This document shows, in pieces, positions 2,626-39,211 of a stretch of 64,000 bases of DNA (position 1 is its first letter; each line of letters opens with the position of its first letter). Location of the stretch: the NCBI GenBank assembly GCA_018812715.1, contig JAHJCT010000011.1, positions 50,614 to 114,613 on the forward strand, in the 5' to 3' direction. A program made the position numbers and the translations under genes. The notes under the pieces are model-generated. The model saw only the letters and a program-made list of their open reading frames with translations, was not told the DNA's origin and did no database searches. Source of the DNA: Microcaldota archaeon. Lineage in GTDB: Archaea > Micrarchaeota > Micrarchaeia > Anstonellales > Bilamarchaeaceae.

Positions 2626-2961
2626 ATGATAGATGGGTATTCATTTGGTCGTATTGTAGTAAATGGAAAAACCTATACAAATGATATCAAAATTTTCAAC
2701 AATATCATAAAACCAGATTGGTGGCGTAAAGAAGGCCACAAACTCTACTTAGAAGATATGCGGGATGTTCTTGCAGAAAAACCAAAAATAATAATCATAG
2801 GTTGTGGGCATGATGGTGTTATGAAAGTTATGCCAGAAGTTCATGAGTACTGTCAAAAGAATAAAATAGAATTAATCGAACTTTGGACTACTGAAGCAGT
2901 AAAAAAATTCAATGAATTAGCTGGGCCAGGAGTTATCGGTCTTTTCCATCTAACTTGCTAA
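2626..2961 (+). CDS. Mth938-like domain protein
   Basis: A 111-residue protein with the Mth938/AAMDC fold signature: IDGYSFGRIVVNGKTY at the start, PDWWRKEGHKL near residue 32 and IIIGCGHDGVMKV near residue 62. The ATG at 2626 was chosen because the family begins with this segment; longer upstream reading frame would overlap the divergent nucleotidyltransferase gene. The family is widespread in archaea and bacteria but its biochemical role is not settled. The last four bases overlap the 3' end of the convergent aldehyde dehydrogenase gene. Confidence 0.82.
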   Translation: MIDGYSFGRIVVNGKTYTNDIKIFNNIIKPDWWRKEGHKLYLEDMRDVLAEKPKIIIIGCGHDGVMKVMPEVHEYCQKNKIELIELWTTEAVKKFNELAGPGVIGLFHLTC

Positions 2962-4406
2962 TCAATTTGTGCCTTTTGCAATTTTCCTGAATAATCTACA
3001 TACACTGTTTTGAGATATGAAAATTCATCTATTCCTGTAATTCCTGCTTCTCTTGTATGGCCTGTTCCTTTTATCCCACCAAATGGTAAATGCACTTCAG
3101 ATCCTATCGTGCTGGAATTAATGTATGTTAAACCAGCCTCAATTTTCTGTACTGCTCTAAATCCATTACTAACATCCTTGGTGTAAATAGAAGAACTAAG
3201 GCCATACTCAATATCATTTGCCATTTCTATAGCATCATCTAATCTATCAAATTCTAAAACAGAAAGAATTGGTCCAAATATCTCTTCTTGGGCTATGTGC
3301 ATATCATTTGTTACTGATGTGAAAATTGTTGGCTGGTGGAAAAATCCCCTTCCAAATGCTTTTTTCCCTCCACAAAGCATTTTTGCCCCTTCCTTTTTTC
3401 CTATTTCAACATATCTCGCTGTTTTTTCCTGAGCTTTTTTGTTGATCAGTGGCCCAACATCAGTTGTTTTCAAAAGCGGATTCCCTAATCTCAGTTTTTT
3501 TGTTCTTTGCACAAGAGCTGCCAACAATTTTTCTTTTACTTTTTTGTGTACTATAACTCTGCTTGCAGCAGTGCATCGCTGTCCTGCTGTTCCAAATGCG
3601 CCCCAAAGTATTCCATCTACAGCAAGAGAAAGATCAGCATCGTCCATTACAATAATCGGATTTTTTCCTCCCAACTCCAACCCTACTTTCTTTAGTCCTG
3701 CATTTTTGACAATCCATTCCCCAGTAAATTTCGATCCTGTAAAAGACAAACCATGGATTTTTGGGTGTTTTACTATTGCTTCTCCAACATCTGAGGCTGA
3801 TCCAGTAACAAAGTTTACAACGCCAGGAGGAACACCCGCTTTTTCTAATATTTTTACAAGTTCATAAGCGCAAAGCGGCGTATCAGAGCTTGGCTTGAAT
3901 ACCACAGTATTCCCGCATACAAGTGCGGGAGCAATTTTCCATGCTGGTATTGCTATTGGGAAGTTCCAAGGGCTTATCAATCCCATAATCCCAACCGGCA
4001 TTCGTATTGTCATAGAGAATTTATTTCTCAGTTCACTTGTTGTTGTATGACCAAAAAGTCTCCTTCCTTCACCTGCCATATATTCAAAAACATCTATCGC
4101 TTCTTGTACATCACCAAGTGCTTCTGGCAAAACTTTTCCCATCTCAGTAGATACAAGTCTTCCTAATCTTTGCTTATCCTTTCTCAGTAAATCGGCTATA
4201 TTTTGTAATAATCTTCCACGTGTTGGCGGAGGAGTTTCAGACCATTTTTTGTAGGCATCTTCAGCAGCACCTACTGCCATTTTTACGTGCTTGTCTTTTC
4301 CTTTTGGGAATTTTGCAATTATTTTTTCTGTCGTTGGATTTATTGTTTCAAAAGTTTCGTCAGCACCAATCCATTTCCCATCAATGTACATCTTATAAAC
4401 AGGCAT
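2958..4406 (-). CDS. NAD(P)-dependent aldehyde dehydrogenase (succinate-semialdehyde/lactaldehyde type)
   Basis: A full-length 482-residue aldehyde dehydrogenase. The coenzyme-binding PWNFPIAIPAWKIAPAL segment, the GSKFTGEWI loop, the general base in LELGGKNP and the catalytic cysteine in AGQRCTAASR are all present. The C-terminal HLPFGGIKGTG loop is intact. These enzymes oxidise aldehydes to acids with NAD or NADP. The closest annotated group by motif is succinate-semialdehyde or lactaldehyde dehydrogenase, but the substrate remains inference. The gene stands alone, convergent with the Mth938-like gene and divergent from the dUTPase-fold gene across a 51-nt promoter region. Confidence 0.92.
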   Translation of the reverse strand: MPVYKMYIDGKWIGADETFETINPTTEKIIAKFPKGKDKHVKMAVGAAEDAYKKWSETPPPTRGRLLQNIADLLRKDKQRLGRLVSTEMGKVLPEALGDVQEAIDVFEYMAGEGRRLFGHTTTSELRNKFSMTIRMPVGIMGLISPWNFPIAIPAWKIAPALVCGNTVVFKPSSDTPLCAYELVKILEKAGVPPGVVNFVTGSASDVGEAIVKHPKIHGLSFTGSKFTGEWIVKNAGLKKVGLELGGKNPIIVMDDADLSLAVDGILWGAFGTAGQRCTAASRVIVHKKVKEKLLAALVQRTKKLRLGNPLLKTTDVGPLINKKAQEKTARYVEIGKKEGAKMLCGGKKAFGRGFFHQPTIFTSVTNDMHIAQEEIFGPILSVLEFDRLDDAIEMANDIEYGLSSSIYTKDVSNGFRAVQKIEAGLTYINSSTIGSEVHLPFGGIKGTGHTREAGITGIDEFSYLKTVYVDYSGKLQKAQID

Positions 4407-4457
4407 AGTTTAGCGTCTTCTCCAAACATTATAAACTTTTGTTGAGTACAATAAAGT

Positions 4458-4943
4458 ATGATTCTACCAAAACAACATCTTGAGAAAGGCAACATTATCG
4501 ATGGCTTACATGACAGCCAATACCAACCATGTGGCATAGACATAACTTTGAAAGAAGTCTATGGTTTCAAATCATCTGGTTTGATAGATTTTGATAATTC
4601 TGAAAGAAAGATTAGTGAGGTTGAACCTTTAGCTTTTGAAAATGATAAAGTCACACTAAAACCTGGTGCGTATAAAGTAATATTCAACGAATATGTTCGC
4701 ATACCTTCTGATGTAGCAGCAATGTGTCTTCCGCGTTCTTCCCTTCTTCGTTGTGGTGTAACACTTGAGTGTGCTTTATGGGATCCTGGCTATGAAGGAA
4801 GAAGCGAGGCACTTTTGTTAGTAAAAAATGACCACGGAATTACATTCAAAAGAAATGCAAAAATAGGGCAAATGGTTTTTGTCAAACTTCCAGAAGATGC
4901 CAAATCTGTTTATGAAGGCCAATACAAAGGAGAAAACAAATAA
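4458..4943 (+). CDS. dCTP deaminase / dUTPase family protein
   Basis: A 161-residue trimeric dUTPase-fold protein. It begins MILPKQHLEKGNIIDG, as archaeal family members do, has QPCGIDITLKEV as motif 1, IPSDVAAMCLPRSSLLRCG as the nucleotide-binding segment and ALWDPGYEGRSEALL as the catalytic strand. Enzymes of this fold hydrolyse dUTP or deaminate dCTP to keep uracil out of DNA. Sequence alone does not settle which activity this one has. Length is normal. It is convergent with the cDPG synthetase gene, meeting it without spacer. Confidence 0.85.
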   Translation: MILPKQHLEKGNIIDGLHDSQYQPCGIDITLKEVYGFKSSGLIDFDNSERKISEVEPLAFENDKVTLKPGAYKVIFNEYVRIPSDVAAMCLPRSSLLRCGVTLECALWDPGYEGRSEALLLVKNDHGITFKRNAKIGQMVFVKLPEDAKSVYEGQYKGENK

Positions 4944-6267
4944 TTATTTCAATATCTCATCAACTAATTCTGTAAGACTTCCTTTTCTCTCTTTAATACT
5001 GTAATTAATGTGCAAAACAGGAATATCTACTTTCAGAATTTTTGTTAAGTCTACAGGAGTTCCTGAAATCACAACATCTGCTCCACTTTTGTTTATTGTT
5101 TCTGCAAGATCTTCAATTTGCGTGCCATAATATCCCATTGCAGGTACTACCTTTTCCAGGTGTGGATACTTTTCATAAGTTTCTTTTATGCTCCCAACTG
5201 CATGAGGCCTTGGATCTATAATTTCAGCTCCATTCTTGCGTGCATATTCAAATCCTGCACCAAAAGTCATGCCACCATGCGTAACAGTTGGGCCATCCTC
5301 AACAACAATTGCTTTTTTCCCGTTTATATCCATCTTCTTATCTGCTGTAAGCTCCAAATCTGTTTCCAGAACCTTTGCATTAGGATTAGCCTTCTCCACA
5401 TTCTTCATTATTCTCTTTACATCAGCAGGGTTTTCTTCGACTTTGTTTATCACTATTACATCAGCTGATCGGAAATTTGTCTCTCCTGGATAATAGTACA
5501 TTTCATGTCCAGGCCTTAATGCATCAGCAACTACGAAATAAAGATCTGATTTAATGAATGGCATATCATTATTTCCCCCATCCCATATTACAACATCTGC
5601 TTCTTTCTCTGCTTCTTTAAGTATCTCAGCATAATCTATTCCAGCATAAACAACAATTCCATTTTTGATGTGTGGTTCATATTCTTCTCTTTCTTCTATG
5701 GTGCACTCGTGCTTGTCAAGATCTTCCATAGTTGCAAATCTTTGTATTTTTTGCTTTGCCAAATTCCCATACGGCATAGGGTGTCTTATAACTACAGTCT
5801 TTATTCCTCTTTCTTTCAGTATTTTTGTAAGCGTACGGGTAAGCGGACTTTTTCCACACCCAGTTCTTACAGCTGTTACTGCTATGGTTTTCTTTTCACT
5901 TTTAAGCATCGTTTCTCTGGGACCTAAAAGAACAAAACTTGCTCCACTTGCTTGCGTACGGGAAGCAAGATGCATAACATATTCATGAGACACATCAGAG
6001 TATGAAAAGTATACTTCATCTACCGAATGCTCTTTGATTAGTTTTTCCATATCTTTCTCATCATAAATTGCTATGCCTTCAGGGTAAAGCTTTCCTGCTA
6101 ATTCTGGCGGATATTTCCTGCCTGCAATTTTTGGTATCTGGGTTGCAGTAAACCCAACTACTTGATAAGCAGCATTACTTCGAAAAAACATATTGAAGTT
6201 ATGGAATTCGCGAACCTTCTGGCTAATCACGTCCTGCTGCACCGAGTATCAAAACCTTCTTTTTCAT
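4944..6267 (-). CDS. cpgS: Cyclic 2,3-diphosphoglycerate synthetase-like P-loop protein, interrupted by a 19-nt putative intron
   Basis: Exon 1 (6267-6226) encodes MKKKVLILGAAGRD. A 19-nt insertion (6225-6207) with an immediate TAG follows, then exon 2 (6206-4944) starts FHNFN and runs to the stop. Joining the exons recreates the conserved family start GAAGRDFHNFN and gives a 434-residue protein, the family's usual length. The P-loop VRTGCGKSP is near residue 130. WDGGNND and VINKVEENP follow, as in this COG2403 family. The enzyme makes the thermolyte/phosphate store cDPG from 2,3-DPG and ATP in the cytoplasm. Without splicing, only a GTG at 6242 could start the main frame, which would lose the conserved N-terminal Gly-rich strand. 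The 5' 41 nt overlap the end of the endonuclease gene. Confidence 0.85.
6207..6225 (-). other. Putative 19-nt BHB intron in a protein-coding gene
   Basis: On the minus strand the junction folds as a canonical bulge-helix-bulge. The outer exon helix is GGA with TCC. The central 4-bp helix is CGTG (exon) with CGCG (intron). The first 3-nt bulge is AT^T and the second is AA^T. The inner helix is AGCC with GGTT, closed by an AGAA tetraloop. Cutting at the standard position in each bulge releases exactly 19 nt and joins GAT to TTC, restoring GRD-FHNFN. The intron contains an in-frame TAG and has length 1 mod 3, so unspliced mRNA cannot give the full protein. The fold and frame were read directly; splicing is inferred. 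Confidence 0.8.
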
Positions 6268-7303
6268 GCTCTCTACTCTCATTTAGCATTTTAATAAGTT
6301 CCTCTCCTCTTTTTGAAAGTGAATAAAATTTGAAATATGGTGCATCACTTCCGGTTACACGTTTTTTTATGACTTTTGTCAAACCAAAATAAGTATCTTT
6401 TCCTAATGCATCTCTAACTGACCAATGAGAACGATTTGTTTTATCTGCAATCTCATTTATCAAAAGAGGTGGGCTGTCCATTAAAATAGACCAATATCTC
6501 ATATGTGAACGCGTGTATTGTTTTCTCAGATAACATTTTATCAATTTAGTCCATTGTCTTTTGGATGAACTAAAATGCCCATCAAGAATTAAATTTGTCA
6601 TATTATGTACGCCAGTAATGCTTATCTCAAATGAGCCTTTTGTATATCGTATACGTGGTACTGTATCATACAATTCTTTGAAACAATCATAAAGGAAATC
6701 TTTCATATCTCCATCTTTGACAGTTATGCAGATTCCATACAAGTATCCATTTCTCTGAAGGATGGAGCCATCACCAACTTCATACCCATCTAAGAAACTT
6801 TTTGTAAGATCTTTATTGTTTTTTATTATCTGAAGTGATTTTTTTACAATCTTATTGAAAATAATTGCAAAAATGGTATTGTGTATTCGTAAGTCAACAA
6901 TATCCTGTCTCGCTTTTTTGGTATTATTCGCTTTAATGTGCTCTATATCTAATTTCTTTTTCCACAATTTTTCAATTTTATTTAAATTCTTTCTATCCAT
7001 CGGAGTTTTGATATATGCTCTCCACATCTTACTATTGACACCAAATTCCTTTTCTATTGCCCTCTTGAATTTTTCTATCAATTCTATTTCACGATTTGCT
7101 ATTCCAATACCAGAGTACATTTGTTTAGATCCCTCAGCAATAAAAAATCCGATTAACCAAGCTACCTCTTTGTTTATACTGATGTATCGTGCCATCTCAA
7201 TTTTTGTTCTTTTTGAGGCACTAACTAAAACTAATTTTTCATTATTCTTACTATAGATTGTTTCGTTACTAATAAGGTTTTCTATGTCTAATTTTTCTAT
7301 CAT
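6227..7303 (-). CDS. LAGLIDADG homing endonuclease
   Basis: A 358-residue protein with two LAGLIDADG motifs: WLIGFFIAEGS at about residues 49-59 and FLDGYEVGDGS at about 170-180. A C-terminal region with a winged-helix look (INEIADKTNRSHWSVRDAL) follows. The acidic residue ending each motif is kept, so it is likely an active monomeric nuclease that cleaves a long DNA target. There are no intein splicing motifs at its ends, so it is freestanding. Its final codons read through the start of the cDPG synthetase gene in another frame, and its TGA stop (6229-6227) sits one base before the proposed exon 1/intron junction. A promoter with the shared motif at 7339-7360 lies upstream. Confidence 0.88.
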   Translation of the reverse strand: MIEKLDIENLISNETIYSKNNEKLVLVSASKRTKIEMARYISINKEVAWLIGFFIAEGSKQMYSGIGIANREIELIEKFKRAIEKEFGVNSKMWRAYIKTPMDRKNLNKIEKLWKKKLDIEHIKANNTKKARQDIVDLRIHNTIFAIIFNKIVKKSLQIIKNNKDLTKSFLDGYEVGDGSILQRNGYLYGICITVKDGDMKDFLYDCFKELYDTVPRIRYTKGSFEISITGVHNMTNLILDGHFSSSKRQWTKLIKCYLRKQYTRSHMRYWSILMDSPPLLINEIADKTNRSHWSVRDALGKDTYFGLTKVIKKRVTGSDAPYFKFYSLSKRGEELIKMLNESREHEKEGFDTRCSRT

Positions 7304-7338
7304 TATCTAATTTACTTTTCCCTAATTAATAAATAAAC

Positions 7339-7360
7339 AGAGACCTCATTTCCGCAGAAA
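7339..7360 (-). promoter_or_regulatory. Promoter-proximal motif, copy 1 (upstream of the endonuclease gene)
   Basis: Read on the minus strand this is TTTCTGCGGAAATGAGG followed by TCTCT. It matches two other sites at 34707-34728 and 45988-46009 at most positions. A TATA-like TTTATTTATTAA follows at once (about 7325-7337), and the endonuclease ATG lies 35 nt from the motif. The position just upstream of TATA is where archaeal BRE elements and activator sites sit. The factor that binds it is unknown. Confidence 0.55.
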
Positions 7361-7391
7361 CTCTCTTAAATTTAGACAATAAAAATCCTTT

Positions 7392-8270
7392 ATGCGTATT
7401 GTAATAGCATTGGGAGGAAATGCTCTCTTACCTAAAGGGGCAAAAGGCACTGCAGGCGAGCAATTAGATGCTGCAAAAAAAGCAATAACAGAAATCGAAG
7501 ATGTTCTTAAAAAAAATCAAGTTGTTTTGACACACGGAAATGGTCCGCAGGTTGGTAATCTCTTGCTTCAGCAATCTGGTACAAAGGAAGTAGCAGAAAT
7601 GCCCTTAGATGTTCTTGATGCAATGACTCAAGGGCAGATAGGTTATTTTATCGCCAGTGCAATTTCTTTAACTGGCCTTCACTCAGCAACTCTTATTACT
7701 AGAGTTGTTGTTGATCCTGAAGACAAGGCATTTGAGAATCCAACAAAACCAGTAGGGCCTTTTTATGAAAAACAAATAAAGCCAGGAATGAAAATGGATG
7801 CAGGGCGTGGATATAGGCTTGTTGTTCCTTCGCCTACGCCACTCAAGATAAGGGAACACGATGCTATTAGTGCCCTTTTAGAAAGAAATTTCGTAGTCAT
7901 TGCAGTTGGGGGTGGGGGAATACCAATAAAAAATAATGGTGAAGGGCTTGAAGCAGTAATTGATAAAGATAAAGCCACCTCTCTTCTTGCAACACAGATA
8001 AATGCAGATCTCCTTGTTTTTGTTACTTCTGTTGATTGTGTTTATCTTAATTTTGGCAAGCCTAATCCGTCTAAACTTTCAAAAACAAGTATTTCAATTG
8101 CCAAAAAATATATGGCAGAAGGGCACTTTGCTGAGGGCAGTATGAAACCTAAAGTTGAATCTGTAATAAAGTTCTTGGAAAATGGGGGCAAGAAAGCAAT
8201 CATTTGTTCTATAAATAATATTCGTTTAGCATTACAGGAAAAAGCAGGAACAATAATCTCAAACGTCTAA
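7392..8270 (+). CDS. arcC: Carbamate kinase
   Basis: A 292-residue amino-acid-kinase-fold protein. It starts MRIVIALGGNALLPKG, the carbamate kinase signature, followed by VLTHGNGPQVGNLLLQ, the long insert with VVDPEDKAFENPTKPVGPFY typical of the ArcC subfamily, and the nucleotide-binding IAVGGGGIPI. It interconverts carbamoyl phosphate + ADP with carbamate + ATP. In archaea it can supply carbamoyl phosphate or regenerate ATP from fermentative nitrogen catabolism. No deiminase or ornithine carbamoyltransferase gene is adjacent, although a secreted deiminase-like gene lies at 31.9 kb. Convergent overlap of 12 nt with the archease gene. Confidence 0.93.
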   Translation: MRIVIALGGNALLPKGAKGTAGEQLDAAKKAITEIEDVLKKNQVVLTHGNGPQVGNLLLQQSGTKEVAEMPLDVLDAMTQGQIGYFIASAISLTGLHSATLITRVVVDPEDKAFENPTKPVGPFYEKQIKPGMKMDAGRGYRLVVPSPTPLKIREHDAISALLERNFVVIAVGGGGIPIKNNGEGLEAVIDKDKATSLLATQINADLLVFVTSVDCVYLNFGKPNPSKLSKTSISIAKKYMAEGHFAEGSMKPKVESVIKFLENGGKKAIICSINNIRLALQEKAGTIISNV

Positions 8271-8687
8271 GATTGCAAATGCCTTCCATGCATCTGTTTT
8301 TTCTACTTTATACATATGCCAGCTGACTGCTTTAACATCAACAATCATATGGTGTTTTTTGTTGTCAATTTTTTCACCTTTCAATGATGCTTCAAGTATT
8401 ATTTCTTCTCTTTTTTTGGAAAATTTAAGTTCATATTTGCTAAAAATAAGCATCTCAGCATCTTTGTAGAATACAATCTCAGAAAGAAAATTATGGAGAA
8501 GCTTTTCTTCAGTGGTTGATTTCAGGCAAAATGTTACTGTTTCCTTTGCTTCTATTTTTTCAGGATTTTCTATCATTGAATTTGTTAAAGCTCTTCCTGC
8601 ACTTTCAAAAAGTTCTTCCAGTGTTTTTCCTGTGGCTTCAAATGCCACATCAGCCATTGCAACTCCTTCAACAAATTTGTACGGCAT
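8259..8687 (-). CDS. Archease, RtcB cofactor
   Basis: A 142-residue archease. The N-terminal FVEGVAMADVAFEATGKTLEELFE, LLHNFLSEIVFYKDAE and the C-terminal VKAVSWHMYKVEK (metal-binding region) match the family. Archease activates RtcB by promoting guanylylation and multiple turnover during tRNA ligation. The gene follows rtcB with 1 nt between the rtcB stop and its ATG, so they are one transcription and translation unit. This partnership matters here because at least four tRNA genes and one mRNA in the window carry putative BHB introns. Confidence 0.92.
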   Translation of the reverse strand: MPYKFVEGVAMADVAFEATGKTLEELFESAGRALTNSMIENPEKIEAKETVTFCLKSTTEEKLLHNFLSEIVFYKDAEMLIFSKYELKFSKKREEIILEASLKGEKIDNKKHHMIVDVKAVSWHMYKVEKTDAWKAFAILDV

Positions 8688-8688
8688 C

Positions 8689-10146
8689 CTATCCCTTTAC
8701 ATTACCCAAAGGCAGAAGTTTTACGACCTTCTTTGATATACCTGCATTATGTGTTGATTCTATTACTTCATCTATTGGCTTATATGCTCCACCTGCTTCT
8801 TCAGCAAGACCAGCAAACGATACAGTTTTGATATAAATTCCTTTTTTCTCTAATTCTTTTTGCAATGTGTCTCCTCTGTATTTGCGTTTTGCTTCTGCCC
8901 TGCTCATAACCCGTCCTGAACCATGTGCTGTAGTAAACCATGTTTCTTTTGCACTTTCCTGCCCTACAAGAAGCCAGGAACCAGTTTCCATGCTTCCGCC
9001 TATTAGTATTGGCTGGCCATCGTCTCTGTAAAACGGTGGGATCTCTTCGCGTCCTGGTCCAAATGCTGCGGTGGCACCTTTTCTATGTACTATAAGCTCA
9101 CGCATTTGTCCATCAACTTCATGTTTTTCAACAGATGCTCTGTTATGACAGATATCATAGATCTGATGCATTCCAAGATCTTCTGCACTTTGCCCAAATA
9201 TTTTTGCAAAGCTTTCTCTTATTCTATGTGCTATTGTCTGTCTGTTAGCAAAACCCATATTCACAGCACAACTCATTGCAGCAAAATAATCCTGTCCTTC
9301 TGGAGAATTGAAAGGTGCCGAAGCAAGTTCCTTATCAAGTATTTTGATCTTATATTTGCTCTCCATCACATTTAGGAAAAGATCCAGGTAATCACTTGCT
9401 ACTTGATGGCCAAAACCCCTACTACCACAATGAAACATAACTACTATTTGATCAGGAAAGATGCCCCATTTCTTTGCAAGTTTTTCATCTACAATGTTTT
9501 CTTCTTTAACATGTTGAATTTCCAGATAATGATTTCCAGAACCCAATGTTCCGACCTGATTAAGTCCTCTTTTTATTGCTTTTTTGCTTACCTTACTTGA
9601 ATCTGCTTCTTTGACTCCACCATACATCTCGGTTCTTTCTAAATCCTCTTTCCATCCATATCCTTTTTCTACACACCATTTAGCTCCGGTATCCACTAAT
9701 TCATTGAATTCGTTTGGATTCAATTTCAAAATACCAGAGCTTCCTACGCCGGCAGGAACGTCTTTGTAAAGAGTGTCAACCAATTGATGAAGTTTCGGTT
9801 TTACATCGTTGATAGTAAGATTTGTTCTAATTAATCTCATTCCACAATTAATGTCAAAACCAATTCCACCCGGGCTTATCACTCCTTCATTTACATCCAT
9901 CGCTGCCACTCCACCTATGGGGAATCCGTATCCCGAGTGGCCGTCAGCCATACAAAATGCATATTTTTGGATTCCAGGAAGTGTTGCTACATTGCTTATT
10001 TGATCATAAACATGCAGGTCCATTTGATCAAGCAGGTTCTTACTGGCGTATATTCTTGCCGGAACTCTCATTCCTTCTTTATAGTCGGTTCCTATTTCCC
10101 AAATATAATCACTAATCTTTTTGAAATTCGGTTTTTTAAATTCCAT
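8689..10146 (-). CDS. rtcB: tRNA-splicing ligase RtcB
   Basis: A full-length 485-residue RtcB without intein. The manganese-binding DINCGMR has Cys near residue 101, LGSGNHYLEIQ and FHCGSRGFGHQ supply metal-site histidines, and AAMSCAVNMGFANRQ, HNRASVEKH and VHRKGATAAFGPG follow. The guanylylated histidine is His about 408 in TTAHGSGRVMSR. RtcB joins the 2',3'-cyclic phosphate of one exon to the 5'-OH of the next after cleavage of BHB introns by the splicing endonuclease. An AGGTGA ribosome site precedes the ATG at 10146. It is followed directly by archease. Confidence 0.97.
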   Translation of the reverse strand: MEFKKPNFKKISDYIWEIGTDYKEGMRVPARIYASKNLLDQMDLHVYDQISNVATLPGIQKYAFCMADGHSGYGFPIGGVAAMDVNEGVISPGGIGFDINCGMRLIRTNLTINDVKPKLHQLVDTLYKDVPAGVGSSGILKLNPNEFNELVDTGAKWCVEKGYGWKEDLERTEMYGGVKEADSSKVSKKAIKRGLNQVGTLGSGNHYLEIQHVKEENIVDEKLAKKWGIFPDQIVVMFHCGSRGFGHQVASDYLDLFLNVMESKYKIKILDKELASAPFNSPEGQDYFAAMSCAVNMGFANRQTIAHRIRESFAKIFGQSAEDLGMHQIYDICHNRASVEKHEVDGQMRELIVHRKGATAAFGPGREEIPPFYRDDGQPILIGGSMETGSWLLVGQESAKETWFTTAHGSGRVMSRAEAKRKYRGDTLQKELEKKGIYIKTVSFAGLAEEAGGAYKPIDEVIESTHNAGISKKVVKLLPLGNVKG

Positions 10147-31252: not shown

Positions 31253-31354
31253 GGCCACGATGGCGTAAACCTCTGAACGTTTTGTTCAGAAGGCGTAATG
31301 GTAGCGTGAGGGGTTGTGGTCCCCTAGGCCTGAGTTCGATTCTCGGTCGTGGCC
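31253..31354 (+). tRNA. tRNA-His (GTG) with a D-loop intron
   Basis: Acceptor GCCACGA pairs with TCGTGGC, with the extra G-1 (31253) opposite C73 (31354) that marks tRNA-His. The anticodon loop TTGTGGT contains GTG, and the T-arm GCCTGAG-TTCGATT-CTCGG is intact. About 30 nt are inserted in the D-loop near 31268-31297, forming a hairpin TCTGAAC-GTTTT-GTTCAGA. A direct repeat GGCGTAA flanks the insertion, so the exact junction is ambiguous. TATA-like TTTTAAATATT lies about 35-40 nt upstream. Confidence 0.93.
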
Positions 31355-34756: not shown

Positions 34757-37700
34757 ATGTTTATTTCCTGCGGTGGATTCGTGTTAAATATTCGAACTAT
34801 TCTTGGATTGGTATTTCTGTTTGTTGTTTTTGCCGGGTGTATAATTCCTGGTCAGGTTGTGCGCACCGATGCTATTGCTGTTTGGCAACATGATGGAGAC
34901 ATCTATTACTCTGTTTGGGATCATGATGGTAAAGCATGGTATGTCCCAGGTGGATTTGGTATTTCAGCTCCTATTGCTACTGACAGTGATGCTGATTATG
35001 ATCCTGATGTTTCATCTAATGAAAAGAATGCTATAGCCGTCTGGACAAAAGGTGGAAATACAATATATTACTCTTTTTGGGAGAATTCTGTTTGGTCTGC
35101 CCCAACAGAAATAAGTAACCTTAATAGCAATACTGATCCCACTGTTGCAATGGATCCTAGCGGTAATGCATTGGCAGTTTGGGTTACTGGACAAACATCT
35201 CTCTCCTATTCATATTATAAAACTGGTATTGGTTGGACTACTCCATCCGCAATAGAAACCAATCTTGCAAAAGTTTCTCTTCCTGAAGTTGCATTTAACC
35301 CACAGGATGGAATATTCTATCTAGTATTTACAGGAAATAATGCTACCAGTACTAATGCATACGCGCTTGGTTATAGTACAACTGCTGGTTGGTCTCTTCC
35401 TGCTCTTATTGGAACTGATGCAGTTCTTGACAATAATCTACCAACAAATCAAAGAACTGGCGTATCTGCTGCAGAAAATAATCTGGAAGTAACGATGGTA
35501 TGGCCTGGAGCTGGTGAAATTTACTCAATAACTTTAGGTGGCTCTGGAAAGAACTTTGATGCTGGTGCAATGCCTGATGTAGCTTATGATTACAATGATG
35601 ATGCAAATGGAGCTTACACAAGACAAAAAGATCTTTACCACCAACCTGATGTTAATACACCAACAACACCTTCTACAATTTCAACACTTTCTGAAAGTGA
35701 TGACCGTGCTTCATTAACATTCATAAGAGATAGAACTATTGGTCTTGTTGTTTGGTGGAATGAAGTTGTATCACCAGGACAAATATATTACTCATATTAT
35801 GAAGGAGGCAACTGGAATGCTGCTGCACAATTAGATATTTCATTAGAACCTGGTTTAGACAGAAACCCAGCAGTAACTCCTCTCAGAAGAATTGTAATTA
35901 ATGAAACAATCCAACCATTCTGTGGAGATGGGATACTTCAATGGCCTTGGGAACAATGCGAAGTTGGAATTCCATGTCCAAATCTTTTAGATTGGTGTAA
36001 TCTTGCAGATTGTCAATGTTACTCTGATTACCCACCACCAAATGATTCGCTCTCTTGCTATGAAAACAGCTGGGTCGCTGCCTTTGGTATGTCCATGTTT
36101 GTACCTGGCATGATGTGTTTTGATGACTGTAATCGACTCGGCAATGAATATGAATGCGATATGACAACATGCGAATGCGAGAAAAAAGTAACTAACTTAT
36201 CATGTTCACTCAATTCAATGGCCTTAGCATTTGGACCAGCTGGTTTATTTGCACCTGGCATGATTTGTGTCGATGACTGCGATGAACTCGGGGATGAGTA
36301 TATCTGTGATATGACAACTTGTGCTTGCGTAGAAGATGATGAATCCGTTTCTTGTTCAAGTAATACCTGGGGAACAGCGCTTGGTGCTCCAAGTAGTTTC
36401 CATCCAGGTATGATGTGTCAGGATGACTGCGATAACCTTGGCGATGAATATGTCTGCGACTTTAAGGATTGTGTTTGCGTAGAAGATGATGATGAACCAG
36501 TTTCTTGCTCTGGCAATACTTGGGGCATGGCCTTTGGGGCAACAAACCAATTTGCAGCAGGTATGTTATGTAGAGACGATTGTGAAAATCTAGGAGATAA
36601 TTTAGAATGTGATTTCACAACTTGTCTTTGTGAAGAAGAAGATGATGGCCCGGTATACTGTGCAGCACATACAAAGGATGTTATTGCTACAGATGTAAAC
36701 AACTTCGATGCAACCACAATGATCTGTGAAGATAATTGTAAAGAACTTGGAGAAGATTATGAATGTAATCTTGGTTCATGTACATGTACTAGACCACCTC
36801 CAAAACAAAACACAAGCTGCTTTGGTAATAGCTTCGATACCATAGTTGGAACAACCAATGGTTTCAACCCACAAACAATGATTTGTGTCGACAATTGTAA
36901 AGAATATTTAGGTACTGGTTTCTATTGTGATATCGAGCCATGTACTTGTACGACTGATGAAGTATTAACCTGTGCAGGACATACCCTTGAAGTTATCGAG
37001 ACAGACGTAAACAATTTCAATCCAAACTCAATGATCTGCTATGATAATTGTGAAGAACAATTAGGCAGTGAATACGAATGTAATCTTGGTTCATGCACAT
37101 GTACCAAAAAGCCAAAAGAAGACGTGAGCTGTTCTGGCAATACCATGGAGTATGCCACGTCATACACCACAGGCAACCAATTTGATCCATCGTCAATGCA
37201 ATGTGTTGATGACTGCGAAGAACTCTTTGATGTTCCAATGACATGTAATGCAGAAACATGTGTTTGTGAACCAAGCTACGTTAGTTGTAAAGAACACACT
37301 TCAGAAGTTGATGCTACAGATGTAAATACATTCAATCCTGCAGATGCAATGATCTGTGAAGATGATTGTGCCACTGGATATGAATGTGTTGTTGATTCAT
37401 GTACTTGTGTAAAGAGACAAAAGAACGTAACATGTTCTGGAAATACTATGGACTTTGGTTTCTCATATACTACAGGTAACCAATTTGATTCATCAGCAAT
37501 GCAATGCGTTGATGACTGCAAAGAATACTTCTCTAATCTTGATATACCAGTAGTCTGTGATGCAACTGATTGTATTTGTCTGCCAGAGAAGAAAGTAACA
37601 TGCACGGGCAATACTTATGATGTAGCAATATATAAAGAGTACAACACTTTCAATCCAAATTACATGATCTGTGAAGACAATTGCGAAGATATGGGAGAAG

Positions 37701-39211
37701 GAATGTACTGTGACATAAAATCGTGCATGTGTAGGAAGAAACCAGGTACAAATGTCTACTGTGCAGCGAATAGTGATGAAGCAATTATTACTAATGCATT
37801 AGGCGTTACTGCAACACACTTCAATTCACAAACTATGCAATGTCTAGACAATTGTAAAGAAATCTATGGCGAGGGCGCTGTTTGTGATACAGAATCCTGC
37901 TATTGTGTACCTGATGAAGGAGAAACTGTTAGCTGTGCACGTTATACTGGATATGTTGATGCAACGGATGTCAATAACTTCAATCCACAAACCATGATCT
38001 GTGAAGATGATTGTGAATACCTTGGCACTGGTTATCAATGTCATCCAAGCTCATGTACTTGTACAAAAACAACACGCACTCCAGTAAGCTGTTCAGTAAA
38101 TGATTATTCAACCGGCTCTCTGGACGAAATATTCCCAAGTGGCTGGTATTGCAAAGATGACTGCGATGATGGTTATGAATGCAATGCAAATTGTAATTGT
38201 GTCCAGTCTGTTGAACCAGTTTGTGGTGATGGGGCAATAACATCTCCAGAAGAGTGTGATTATGGAAGCTCTACAACAAATAAGTGCGGAGAAGGCGAAT
38301 ATTGTTCAGAAAGTTGCATGTGCAATGATCTAGAAACATCAGTAGTCTGTGGAGATGGAAAAATATCCTATCCATATGAAGATTGTGATGGAGGCAATGT
38401 AAAATTCAACATTTGCCCTGAAGGTCAAGAATGTGTCATCTGCAAATGTGTTGGTGAAACAGCCGAATGTGGAGATGGTACGGTTACACCTCCAGAAGAA
38501 TGCGATCATGGAAATAGCTACACAGCACAATGTCCTGGTGCACAGCTATGTTCGTCATGCCAGTGTGTTGATTATGAAGATACATCTCACAAGGAATGTC
38601 TTGATGAAGAATGTGTTTCTGTAACTGGCCTAGGCCAAGATGAATGCACATATGATTATCAATGCGAAGAAATTGAAGAAGGATATTGTGGAGATGGGGA
38701 TATTGGTGCTGGCGAAGAGTGCGAAGATGACAATGATTGTGGCAGTGATGAATTCTGTCATAATTGCCTCTGCTATGAAATACCCTCCTATTGTGGTAAT
38801 GGAAGAGTTGATAGCGGAGAATCCTGTGATCCTAAAGCAAATCCAACTGGCTGTGATGAAACAGGCGTTTGTTCATCAGGATGCAAATGCGTCTACCCAC
38901 CAAGTTTAGATTGTGAATATGTTTGTTCACAAACTTCTGGTGCACAAAGCTTTGGAGGACAATATTCATCTGGAGCCGAATGCAAAGCAGGTGTAGGAGA
39001 GTATTATGGTAGTACAATGTGTTATCTTACCTGTGCATATTCTTGGTATTATGAAGTATCAAATATTGCAGGTGAGGCAAGTTGCTGCTGTGGTATGAAA
39101 AAGATGTTCGCATGTGAAAATTGTCCATGTTATGGCCAGGGTTGTGAGCCAACCTGTCCGCCTACTGAAGAAACCTGCGCAGCCAACGCCCCAAGTTGGC
39201 ATTCTCCTTAA
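34757..39211 (+). CDS. Giant Cys-rich surface lipoprotein with propeller-like head and 14 six-Cys repeats
   Basis: A 1484-residue protein. The signal ILGLVFLFVVFAGC ends in a lipobox cysteine. Residues about 35-370 carry beta-propeller strands of the type AIAVWQHDGDIYYSVWD, repeated five or six times. Residues about 430-1130 hold 14 repeats of about 50 residues with six cysteines each, such as PGMMCQDDCDNLGDEYVCD and SCTCT. Five CGDG/CGNG-x-PEECD units and a final Cys-rich cap follow. All cysteines occur in even sets, so they are probably disulfide-bonded outside the cell. A GTG at 34781 with GGTGG upstream is an alternative start. Likely roles are adhesion or stalk formation; this is inference. 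Confidence 0.85.
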   Translation: MFISCGGFVLNIRTILGLVFLFVVFAGCIIPGQVVRTDAIAVWQHDGDIYYSVWDHDGKAWYVPGGFGISAPIATDSDADYDPDVSSNEKNAIAVWTKGGNTIYYSFWENSVWSAPTEISNLNSNTDPTVAMDPSGNALAVWVTGQTSLSYSYYKTGIGWTTPSAIETNLAKVSLPEVAFNPQDGIFYLVFTGNNATSTNAYALGYSTTAGWSLPALIGTDAVLDNNLPTNQRTGVSAAENNLEVTMVWPGAGEIYSITLGGSGKNFDAGAMPDVAYDYNDDANGAYTRQKDLYHQPDVNTPTTPSTISTLSESDDRASLTFIRDRTIGLVVWWNEVVSPGQIYYSYYEGGNWNAAAQLDISLEPGLDRNPAVTPLRRIVINETIQPFCGDGILQWPWEQCEVGIPCPNLLDWCNLADCQCYSDYPPPNDSLSCYENSWVAAFGMSMFVPGMMCFDDCNRLGNEYECDMTTCECEKKVTNLSCSLNSMALAFGPAGLFAPGMICVDDCDELGDEYICDMTTCACVEDDESVSCSSNTWGTALGAPSSFHPGMMCQDDCDNLGDEYVCDFKDCVCVEDDDEPVSCSGNTWGMAFGATNQFAAGMLCRDDCENLGDNLECDFTTCLCEEEDDGPVYCAAHTKDVIATDVNNFDATTMICEDNCKELGEDYECNLGSCTCTRPPPKQNTSCFGNSFDTIVGTTNGFNPQTMICVDNCKEYLGTGFYCDIEPCTCTTDEVLTCAGHTLEVIETDVNNFNPNSMICYDNCEEQLGSEYECNLGSCTCTKKPKEDVSCSGNTMEYATSYTTGNQFDPSSMQCVDDCEELFDVPMTCNAETCVCEPSYVSCKEHTSEVDATDVNTFNPADAMICEDDCATGYECVVDSCTCVKRQKNVTCSGNTMDFGFSYTTGNQFDSSAMQCVDDCKEYFSNLDIPVVCDATDCICLPEKKVTCTGNTYDVAIYKEYNTFNPNYMICEDNCEDMGEGMYCDIKSCMCRKKPGTNVYCAANSDEAIITNALGVTATHFNSQTMQCLDNCKEIYGEGAVCDTESCYCVPDEGETVSCARYTGYVDATDVNNFNPQTMICEDDCEYLGTGYQCHPSSCTCTKTTRTPVSCSVNDYSTGSLDEIFPSGWYCKDDCDDGYECNANCNCVQSVEPVCGDGAITSPEECDYGSSTTNKCGEGEYCSESCMCNDLETSVVCGDGKISYPYEDCDGGNVKFNICPEGQECVICKCVGETAECGDGTVTPPEECDHGNSYTAQCPGAQLCSSCQCVDYEDTSHKECLDEECVSVTGLGQDECTYDYQCEEIEEGYCGDGDIGAGEECEDDNDCGSDEFCHNCLCYEIPSYCGNGRVDSGESCDPKANPTGCDETGVCSSGCKCVYPPSLDCEYVCSQTSGAQSFGGQYSSGAECKAGVGEYYGSTMCYLTCAYSWYYEVSNIAGEASCCCGMKKMFACENCPCYGQGCEPTCPPTEETCAANAPSWHSP

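What the first reader, a model, noticed from the sequence alone, without database searches (positions are those of the whole stretch)
6196..6267. A 19-nt bulge-helix-bulge intron inside a protein-coding gene (cDPG synthetase)
Seen: the gene starts MKKKVLILGAAGRD, hits a TAG, and continues in another frame at FHNFN. Exactly 19 nt lie between. They and the flanks fold with the standard BHB geometry: outer GGA/TCC, central 4-bp CGTG/CGCG, two 3-nt bulges, inner AGCC/GGTT and a 4-nt loop. Cleavage at the canonical bulge positions restores GAAGRDFHNFN, the conserved family start. Known: archaeal mRNA introns of this type are rare (cbf5 of Crenarchaeota is the textbook case), and most are longer. 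Inference: an extremely small, functional, mRNA intron processed by the tRNA splicing endonuclease and RtcB.
Basis: partly seen in the sequence, partly recalled or inferred. Interest (0 to 1): 0.95.

Follow-up and report, generated by a model that had tools for sequence, protein, structure and literature searches.

The report
Recurrent tiny mRNA intron in Micrarchaeota
A gene in an archaeon known here only from an assembled genome carries a 19-nucleotide insert with the pairing of a bulge-helix-bulge intron, related archaea of other families have different inserts of 19 to 31 nucleotides with the same pairing at exactly the same spot, and these are predicted to be cut out of the RNA by the tRNA-splicing enzymes and may be spread by a predicted DNA-cutting enzyme encoded right beside the gene.

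Summary
The 19 nt (6225-6207, minus strand) pair as a canonical bulge-helix-bulge (BHB), and removing them restores GAAGRD|FHNFN. Of 149 genomes of the phylum (Micrarchaeota, judged by named relatives) whose junction I read as DNA, 144 are uninterrupted; five, from four families, carry different inserts (19, 19, 21, 21, 31 nt) at exactly this nucleotide. All five pair as the same BHB (40 of 40 central and inner cells; inner helix with two-sided changes). Four further database proteins have intron-type N-termini. Lengths of 0 and 1 modulo 3 fit RNA splicing better than translational recoding. On the gene tree carriers are scattered: 8 changes for 9 carriers, or 36 losses if gained once. The genome encodes a splicing endonuclease and RtcB.

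It overlaps exon 1 and ends one base before the splice site; seven database homologues have tails implying the same overlap. I infer collaborative homing, but four intron-bearing genomes lack that endonuclease, so this step is only moderately likely. Splicing itself is untested.

The parts
6226..6267 (-). exon 1 of the cDPGS-family gene, MKKKVLILGAAGRD
   Evidence: uninterrupted homologues read GAAGRDFHNFN here
6207..6225 (-). 19-nt BHB insert (predicted intron), begins with an in-frame TAG
   Evidence: junction uninterrupted in 144 of 149 phylum genomes read
6203..6234 (-). complete bulge-helix-bulge element (outer 3 bp, 3-nt bulge, central 4 bp, 3-nt bulge, inner 4 bp, 4-nt loop)
4944..6206 (-). 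exon 2 of the cDPGS-family gene (FHNFN... to stop)
6227..7303 (-). LAGLIDADG endonuclease gene (358 aa, two LAGLIDADG motifs plus C-terminal helix-turn-helix-like part); stop codon 6229-6227 lies one base before the predicted 5' splice site
   Evidence: with P0008 as query the only match among 301 phylum genomes at E<=1e-15
6227..6267 (-). out-of-frame overlap of the endonuclease tail with exon 1; tails of 7 database homologues imply the same overlap
   Evidence: tail 348-358 has pLDDT under 50 in the model
7392..8270 (+). carbamate-kinase-like gene; 50-54 bp from the cDPGS-family start in 8 genus relatives, 1125 bp here
8259..8687 (-). archease (RtcB partner)
   Evidence: E 4.4e-35
8689..10146 (-). 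RtcB RNA ligase, the expected exon-joining enzyme
   Evidence: E 5.2e-165

Best explanation
The 19 nt are very likely a bulge-helix-bulge intron of a protein-coding mRNA, one of a set of different short inserts found at the same nucleotide of this gene in scattered genomes of the phylum, and the adjacent LAGLIDADG endonuclease may help such inserts invade intronless copies. Predicted path: the host's splicing endonuclease would cut the two 3-nt bulges of the pre-mRNA, RtcB with archease would join GAT to TTC, and the full GAAGRDFHNFN frame would be restored. The exons supply half of the element: GG of the Gly codon pairs with the end of Phe-His (outer helix), and CGNG of Arg-Asp is the 5' strand of the central helix; the insert brings a CGCG strand and a small hairpin. 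Shown here: position, pairing, covariation, recurrence, the enzyme genes and the neighbouring endonuclease gene. Inferred: cleavage, ligation, and that the endonuclease cuts the intronless GRD|FHN site so that repair copies endonuclease gene and intron together (collaborative homing; I give that step 0.4). The confidence below is for the spliced intron.
For: Exact restoration of the conserved junction. Five DNA alleles at one nucleotide, G000 19 nt, G179 19, G146 21, G192 21, G092 31, each in exact BHB register with p 1.7e-4 to 6.9e-4 against 400,000 shuffles. All 40 central and inner cells paired, three inner pairs with a change on both sides, slid registers 17.5 to 56% paired. Lengths 0 and 1 mod 3, with an in-frame TAG in G146 and G192. 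P0034, P0128 and P0157 have N-termini whose codons permit the BHB (3 of 3, against about 1% of random peptides); P0158 also has an intron-type start. A 394-aa splicing endonuclease matches 4fz2 (the ARMAN-2 enzyme, recalled) at 3.3e-135 over residues 6-394. Scattered gene-tree distribution. For the endonuclease: open frame intact, acids E57 and D178 of the two motifs invariant in 31 of 31 aligned; 8 of 32 family tails, the window's included, carry the exon-1 overlap signature, 0 of 64,000 shuffled tails do.
Against: No RNA data. The 72-nt stretch is not more stable than shuffles, and the best fold of the 36-nt element is shifted by one pair. RNAfold on short oligos lacks the outer helix for G146 and G092 (where the central helix also extends into the 3' bulge) and gives a different fold for G192; G179 was not folded. 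The third outer pair is a mismatch in G179 and G092. The shuffle control for covariation is modest with 5 sequences (26 of 500). Three carriers (P0034, P0128, P0157) lie near each other on the tree, so not all gains need be independent. For homing: G092, G146, G179 and G192 have no match to the endonuclease alignment at E 0.001; the intron state beside the seven database homologues is unknown; the overlap signature was written after looking at the tails.
Confidence: 0.85

Rival explanations
1. Spliced intron, but of one ancient origin in the phylum and lost many times, with the endonuclease gene a chance neighbour in this genome.
For: Same nucleotide in all carriers; G146, G192 and G179 share AGG at the start and CCCGCG near the end; four carriers lack the endonuclease.
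Against: A single gain needs 36 losses on the 158-row tree against a minimum of 8 changes; among listed genomes with the gene only 1 of 16 in genus g1, 1 of 5 in g39 and 1 of 9 in g67 carry it.
Confidence: 0.25
2. Spliced intron, repeatedly gained at this site by reverse splicing or other RNA-level insertion, the exon sequence acting as a preformed half BHB; the endonuclease plays no part.
For: The exon already supplies the outer helix and the 5' central strand; carriers without the endonuclease.
Against: Does not explain why the tails of 8 of 32 endonuclease family members imply a gene placed exactly here, overlapping exon 1.
Confidence: 0.25
3. No splicing: translation is rescued by frameshift, stop readthrough or a start at GTG 6242.
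For: An open frame from GTG 6242 runs to the end; readthrough of one TAG would suffice in G146 and G192.
Against: Inserts of 19 and 31 nt would need frameshifts and those of 21 nt readthrough, so no single recoding device fits all; the pairing in exact register is unexplained; a GTG start loses the segment before FHNFN that 144 of 149 genomes keep in frame.
Confidence: 0.04
4. Assembly or sequencing artefact, or a decaying gene.
For: All five carriers are draft assemblies of 82-96% completeness.
Against: Five genomes with the same site; no stop inside the rest of the frame in the five; the window's ORF is listed with a contig of 11,366 bp, not the window's 244,331 bp, which may be a second assembly.
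Confidence: 0.03

Closest known systems
BHB intron of cbf5 mRNA in Crenarchaeota (PMC2738675, passages seen)
   Same: BHB element in a protein-coding mRNA, 16-44 bp, too short to encode a nuclease, cut by the tRNA splicing endonuclease
   Different: Different gene and phylum; sporadic recurrence at one site rather than inferred ancestral presence with some losses; an endonuclease gene beside exon 1; splicing not yet shown
BHB in the 5' UTR of HVO_1309 of Haloferax volcanii (PMC7714728, passage seen)
   Same: Splicing endonuclease acting on an mRNA
   Different: In a leader, not in the coding frame
Archaeal rRNA BHB introns that encode LAGLIDADG endonucleases such as I-DmoI (profile match to I-DmoI; rRNA introns with endonuclease frames, passage of PMC2738675; the rest recalled)
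   Same: BHB intron plus LAGLIDADG endonuclease
   Different: There the endonuclease is encoded inside the intron; here it is a separate gene upstream, overlapping exon 1
Collaborative homing loci of phages (PMC10448857, passages seen)
   Same: Free-standing endonuclease gene next to the N-terminal exon of an intron-bearing gene
   Different: The phage introns are self-splicing (recalled); here the insert is a 19-nt BHB, and cutting of the insertion site is untested

Membership tests
Archaeal BHB introns | two 3-nt bulges 4 bp apart at the exon junctions | tested here: met
   pairing in all 5 DNA alleles, outer third pair mismatched in two; best fold of the window's element shifted by one pair
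Archaeal BHB introns | excision at the bulge positions restores the gene product | tested here: met
   GAAGRD|FHNFN restored
Archaeal BHB introns | host encodes splicing endonuclease and RtcB | tested here: met
   for G000; not tested in the other four carriers
Archaeal BHB introns | RNA shown to be spliced | not testable with these tools
   no RNA data held
cbf5-type mRNA introns | located in cbf5 of Crenarchaeota | tested here: not met
   the gene belongs to the family named cyclic 2,3-diphosphoglycerate synthase or GTPase, in a Micrarchaeota-like genome
LAGLIDADG homing endonucleases | LAGLIDADG domain over Pfam cut-off, two motifs with acidic residues, LAGLIDADG fold | tested here: met
   PF14528 38.6 bits against 22.5, over one motif; E57 and D178 invariant in 31 rows, taken as the catalytic acids by motif (assignment recalled); fold matches to WhiA, inteins, E-DreI, I-DmoI
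LAGLIDADG homing endonucleases | site-specific DNA cleavage | not testable with these tools
   needs an assay
Collaborative homing unit | free-standing endonuclease gene adjacent to an intron-bearing gene | tested here: met
   endonuclease gene 7303-6227 overlaps exon 1
Collaborative homing unit | endonuclease cuts the intron insertion site of the intronless allele | not testable with these tools
   needs an assay
Collaborative homing unit | endonuclease and intron travel together | tested here: inconclusive
   in the genus both occur in G000 only, apart from weak LAGLIDADG matches in G008, G012 and G013; but 4 of 5 intron genomes have no such endonuclease

The most novel reading that the evidence does not exclude
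The first mobile mRNA intron of archaea: a free-standing LAGLIDADG endonuclease cuts intronless cDPGS-family genes at GRD|FHN, and repair installs the endonuclease gene upstream together with a protein-spliced mini-intron that blocks re-cutting, a collaborative homing system built on the tRNA-splicing machinery. In its boldest form the 4-nt stagger typical of such enzymes (recalled) duplicates the palindromic CGCG of the Arg-Asp codons, and this duplication itself becomes the central helix, so that a repair scar is born as an intron.
Probability: 0.35. Interest if true: 0.93.

Novelty: new variant of a known kind. Interest (0 to 1): 0.82.

Why it matters
A 2020 paper names the cbf5 mRNA as the only other BHB mRNA intron reported in archaea (PMC7714728, passage), while an earlier one mentions predicted, unconfirmed introns in other genes (PMC2738675). 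A further gene, in a DPANN-type phylum, with five sequence-distinct alleles at one nucleotide and close intronless relatives, makes gain and loss of protein-spliced introns directly testable. If the neighbouring endonuclease drives it, intron mobility and tRNA-splicing enzymes are linked. It also shows a gene-finding problem: ORF calls give these genes a wrong or missing N-terminus.

Tried and rejected
Considered and rejected or left open: (1) RtcB and archease next door as a special link to the intron. Within the flanks held, archease lies near the gene in 10 and RtcB in 4 genus genomes without the intron (duplicates removed), so closeness is not evidence. (2) A longer intron containing the endonuclease gene: exon 1 lies directly at the 19-nt insert and fits the family start, so there is no need for it. 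(3) Endonuclease relatives in viral contigs: 12 remote hits of at most 39% identity, not followed. (4) Contig lengths of endonuclease and cDPGS-family proteins compared by eye to learn the intron state beside the seven homologues: no equal lengths, only a few off-by-one, which I take as coincidence; unresolved. (5) G107's in-frame TGA lies late in the gene, not at this site. (6) The target-site-duplication idea: the four CGCG exons all face CGCG in the insert, but pairing alone would favour the same letters; it stays a conjecture.

My notes speak of metagenome proteins and of 225 continuous loci; the sources do not say metagenome for all, and the count is 224.

Not covered: archaeal phyla beyond the 80 loci (the best 80 of 575 confirmed, itself a capped list), G075 (one of 150 genomes with a match, place not printed), splicing enzymes of the other carriers, and a genome-wide search for further mRNA introns in G000.

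Full report
What is there. On the minus strand the gene begins at ATG 6267, reads MKKKVLILGAAGRD to 6226, meets TAG, and resumes in another frame at 6206 with FHNFN. The best fold of the 36-nt element (-9.9 kcal/mol, z -2.66) is the same element shifted by one pair: a 5-bp central and a 3-bp inner helix between 3-nt bulges. The whole 72-nt stretch is not unusually stable (z +0.89).

Host and gene. Named close loci are Micrarchaeota or unnamed archaea. The gene family is named cyclic 2,3-diphosphoglycerate synthase or GTPase by sources. It matches solved chains of that name only weakly (9sxb, E 3.1e-7) and no NCBIfam model over its cut-off, so the function is a label, not a result.

Empty sites. 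224 are continuous and five interrupted. The script's count of 226 'continuous' includes two interrupted rows, L001 and L258, which I moved after reading them. So 5 of 149 in the phylum set and 0 of 80 in the other. In the genus 15 of 15 other genomes read are continuous.

The same site in other genomes. G146 has AGGCCACTTTAGGCCCGCGGA, G192 AGGTCTGAATAGACCCGCGGG, G179 AGGCTCTAGGGCCCGCGTA and G092 a 31-nt insert, each exactly between the Asp and Phe codons. They belong to families f20, f21, f20 and f13, the window's genome to f1. All form the central and inner helices in exact register; shuffled inserts do so in 68, 161, 75, 277 and 182 of 400,000 for G000, G146, G192, G179 and G092. On a loop-trimmed alignment 53 of 55 cells pair, the two failures being the third outer pair in G179 and G092; three inner pairs show a change on both sides; slid registers pair 17.5 to 56%. 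With five sequences the shuffle control is modest (26 of 500). Short-oligo folding gives central and inner helices for G146, an extended version without outer helix for G092, and a different best fold for G192; G179 was not folded.

Database proteins. Two searches with intron-type N-termini gave 192 cDPGS-family proteins; six lack GxxGR(D/E) before FHNFN: the window's own, P0224 (begins at RD, a fragment), and P0034, P0128, P0157, P0158, whose N-termini look like read-through of an intron. The searches were built to favour such proteins, so this is no rate. For P0034 (22 nt), P0128 and P0157 (31 nt each; lengths inferred from the proteins) codon choices permit the BHB; 26 to 32 of 3000 random peptides do.

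Why splicing. The DNA-level inserts are 19, 19, 21, 21 and 31 nt, a mix of 1 and 0 modulo 3. Frameshifting would serve some and readthrough others; splicing serves all. The genome encodes a 394-aa splicing endonuclease that matches 4fz2 over residues 6-394 (E 3.3e-135). 4fz2 as the ARMAN-2 enzyme is recalled; that enzyme is described as accepting BHB and relaxed motifs (PMC12397907, passages). RtcB and archease lie in this window, but their closeness to the gene is also found in genus genomes without the intron and proves nothing.

Distribution. On a 158-row tree of exon-2 proteins (145 of the 149 phylum loci, 7 of 192 proteins, 6 of 80 outside loci) the nine carriers need at least 8 changes; 200 draws of nine random rows need 7 (1), 8 (26) or 9 (173); a single gain needs 36 losses with L046 as outgroup. 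It is a quick tree without mixture model, and P0034, P0128 and P0157 lie near each other, with intronless L010 and L002 among them. Counts of changes cannot tell gain from loss; parsimony favours repeated gain.

The endonuclease. Between the carbamate-kinase-like gene and this gene, 8 genus genomes measured have 50-54 bp (L003-L007, L009, L010, L012); in four others (L002, L011, L014, L015) the nearest upstream match was archease. Here there are 1125 bp that hold a 358-aa LAGLIDADG protein. Its model is confident (pLDDT 92) with fold matches to WhiA, inteins, E-DreI, I-DmoI and I-Tsp061I. The acids of both motifs are kept in 31 of 31 aligned sequences (P0032, a short one, was left out). WhiA is a regulator (recalled), so a regulatory role is not excluded. 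The tail reads exon 1 in another frame and stops at the TGA in cgTGAt, one base before the predicted splice site. Eight of 32 family members, the window's included, end in a signature that fits out-of-frame reading of GA(A/G)GRD; 0 of 64,000 shuffled tails, 0 of 10,354 internal 7-mers and 0 of 192 control C-termini do (the signature was written after looking at the tails). This implies that a family of endonuclease genes sits in the same place beside this gene; I could not read their DNA. With P0008 as query the window's genome was the only match among 301 phylum genomes at E 1e-15; weak LAGLIDADG matches exist in 8 of 58 relatives. G092, G146, G179 and G192 have none at E 0.001 with the alignment.

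Mechanism. I commit to a spliced BHB mRNA intron (0.85), recurrently acquired at a site where the exon already provides half the element. That the endonuclease drives acquisition by cutting the intronless junction, as in phage collaborative homing (PMC10448857, passages), is the most interesting step and only moderately likely (0.4): it explains the position of the endonuclease gene, but four carriers do without it. The two rival origins in the rival list share the spliced intron and divide the rest.

Literature. Eight searches on BHB mRNA introns, BHB with homing endonuclease, DPANN or Micrarchaeota introns, collaborative homing, cDPGS and cbf5 showed no report of this intron in their listings (titles and abstract starts, often capped below the number of hits); most subscription papers are not in the library. 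Passages say that cbf5 introns are 16-44 bp and mention predicted introns in other genes, including putative 12-bp ones in an archaeal virus (PMC2738675), and that by 2020 cbf5 was the only other mRNA case (PMC7714728). Passages of PMC6125680 report LAGLIDADG frames in archaeal group I introns, among them Micrarchaeota rRNA introns, and of PMC13149111 nothing on archaeal mRNA introns.

Noticed in passing
G000 whole genome; window 31284-31354: Only 14 tRNA matches over the Rfam cut-off in a 1.27-Mb genome of 90% completeness, some stretched to 105-164 bp; ARAGORN misses the window's own tRNA. Many tRNA genes may be disrupted by introns.
   Followed up: no
L140 1306-1788 (G000:C7:255843-256088): A second ORF, 160 aa, with a splicing-endonuclease domain over the Pfam cut-off, besides the 394-aa enzyme.
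   Followed up: partly
L271 (G000:C21:27200-27370): Weak LAGLIDADG match inside a 1396-aa open frame, possibly an intein.
   Followed up: no
L152 (G107:C12): In-frame TGA late in the cDPGS-family gene (THG*MPYG): decaying gene, sequencing error or recoding.
   Followed up: no
window 2958-10146 and genus loci L002-L015, L040-L043: Neighbourhood of RtcB, archease, carbamate kinase, cDPGS-family gene, dCTP-deaminase-like and aldehyde-dehydrogenase-like genes recurs, in part or whole, across the genus (the last two names are from sequence look, not from a family search).
   Followed up: partly
window 34757-39211: A 1484-aa cysteine-rich open frame with repeated units.
   Followed up: no
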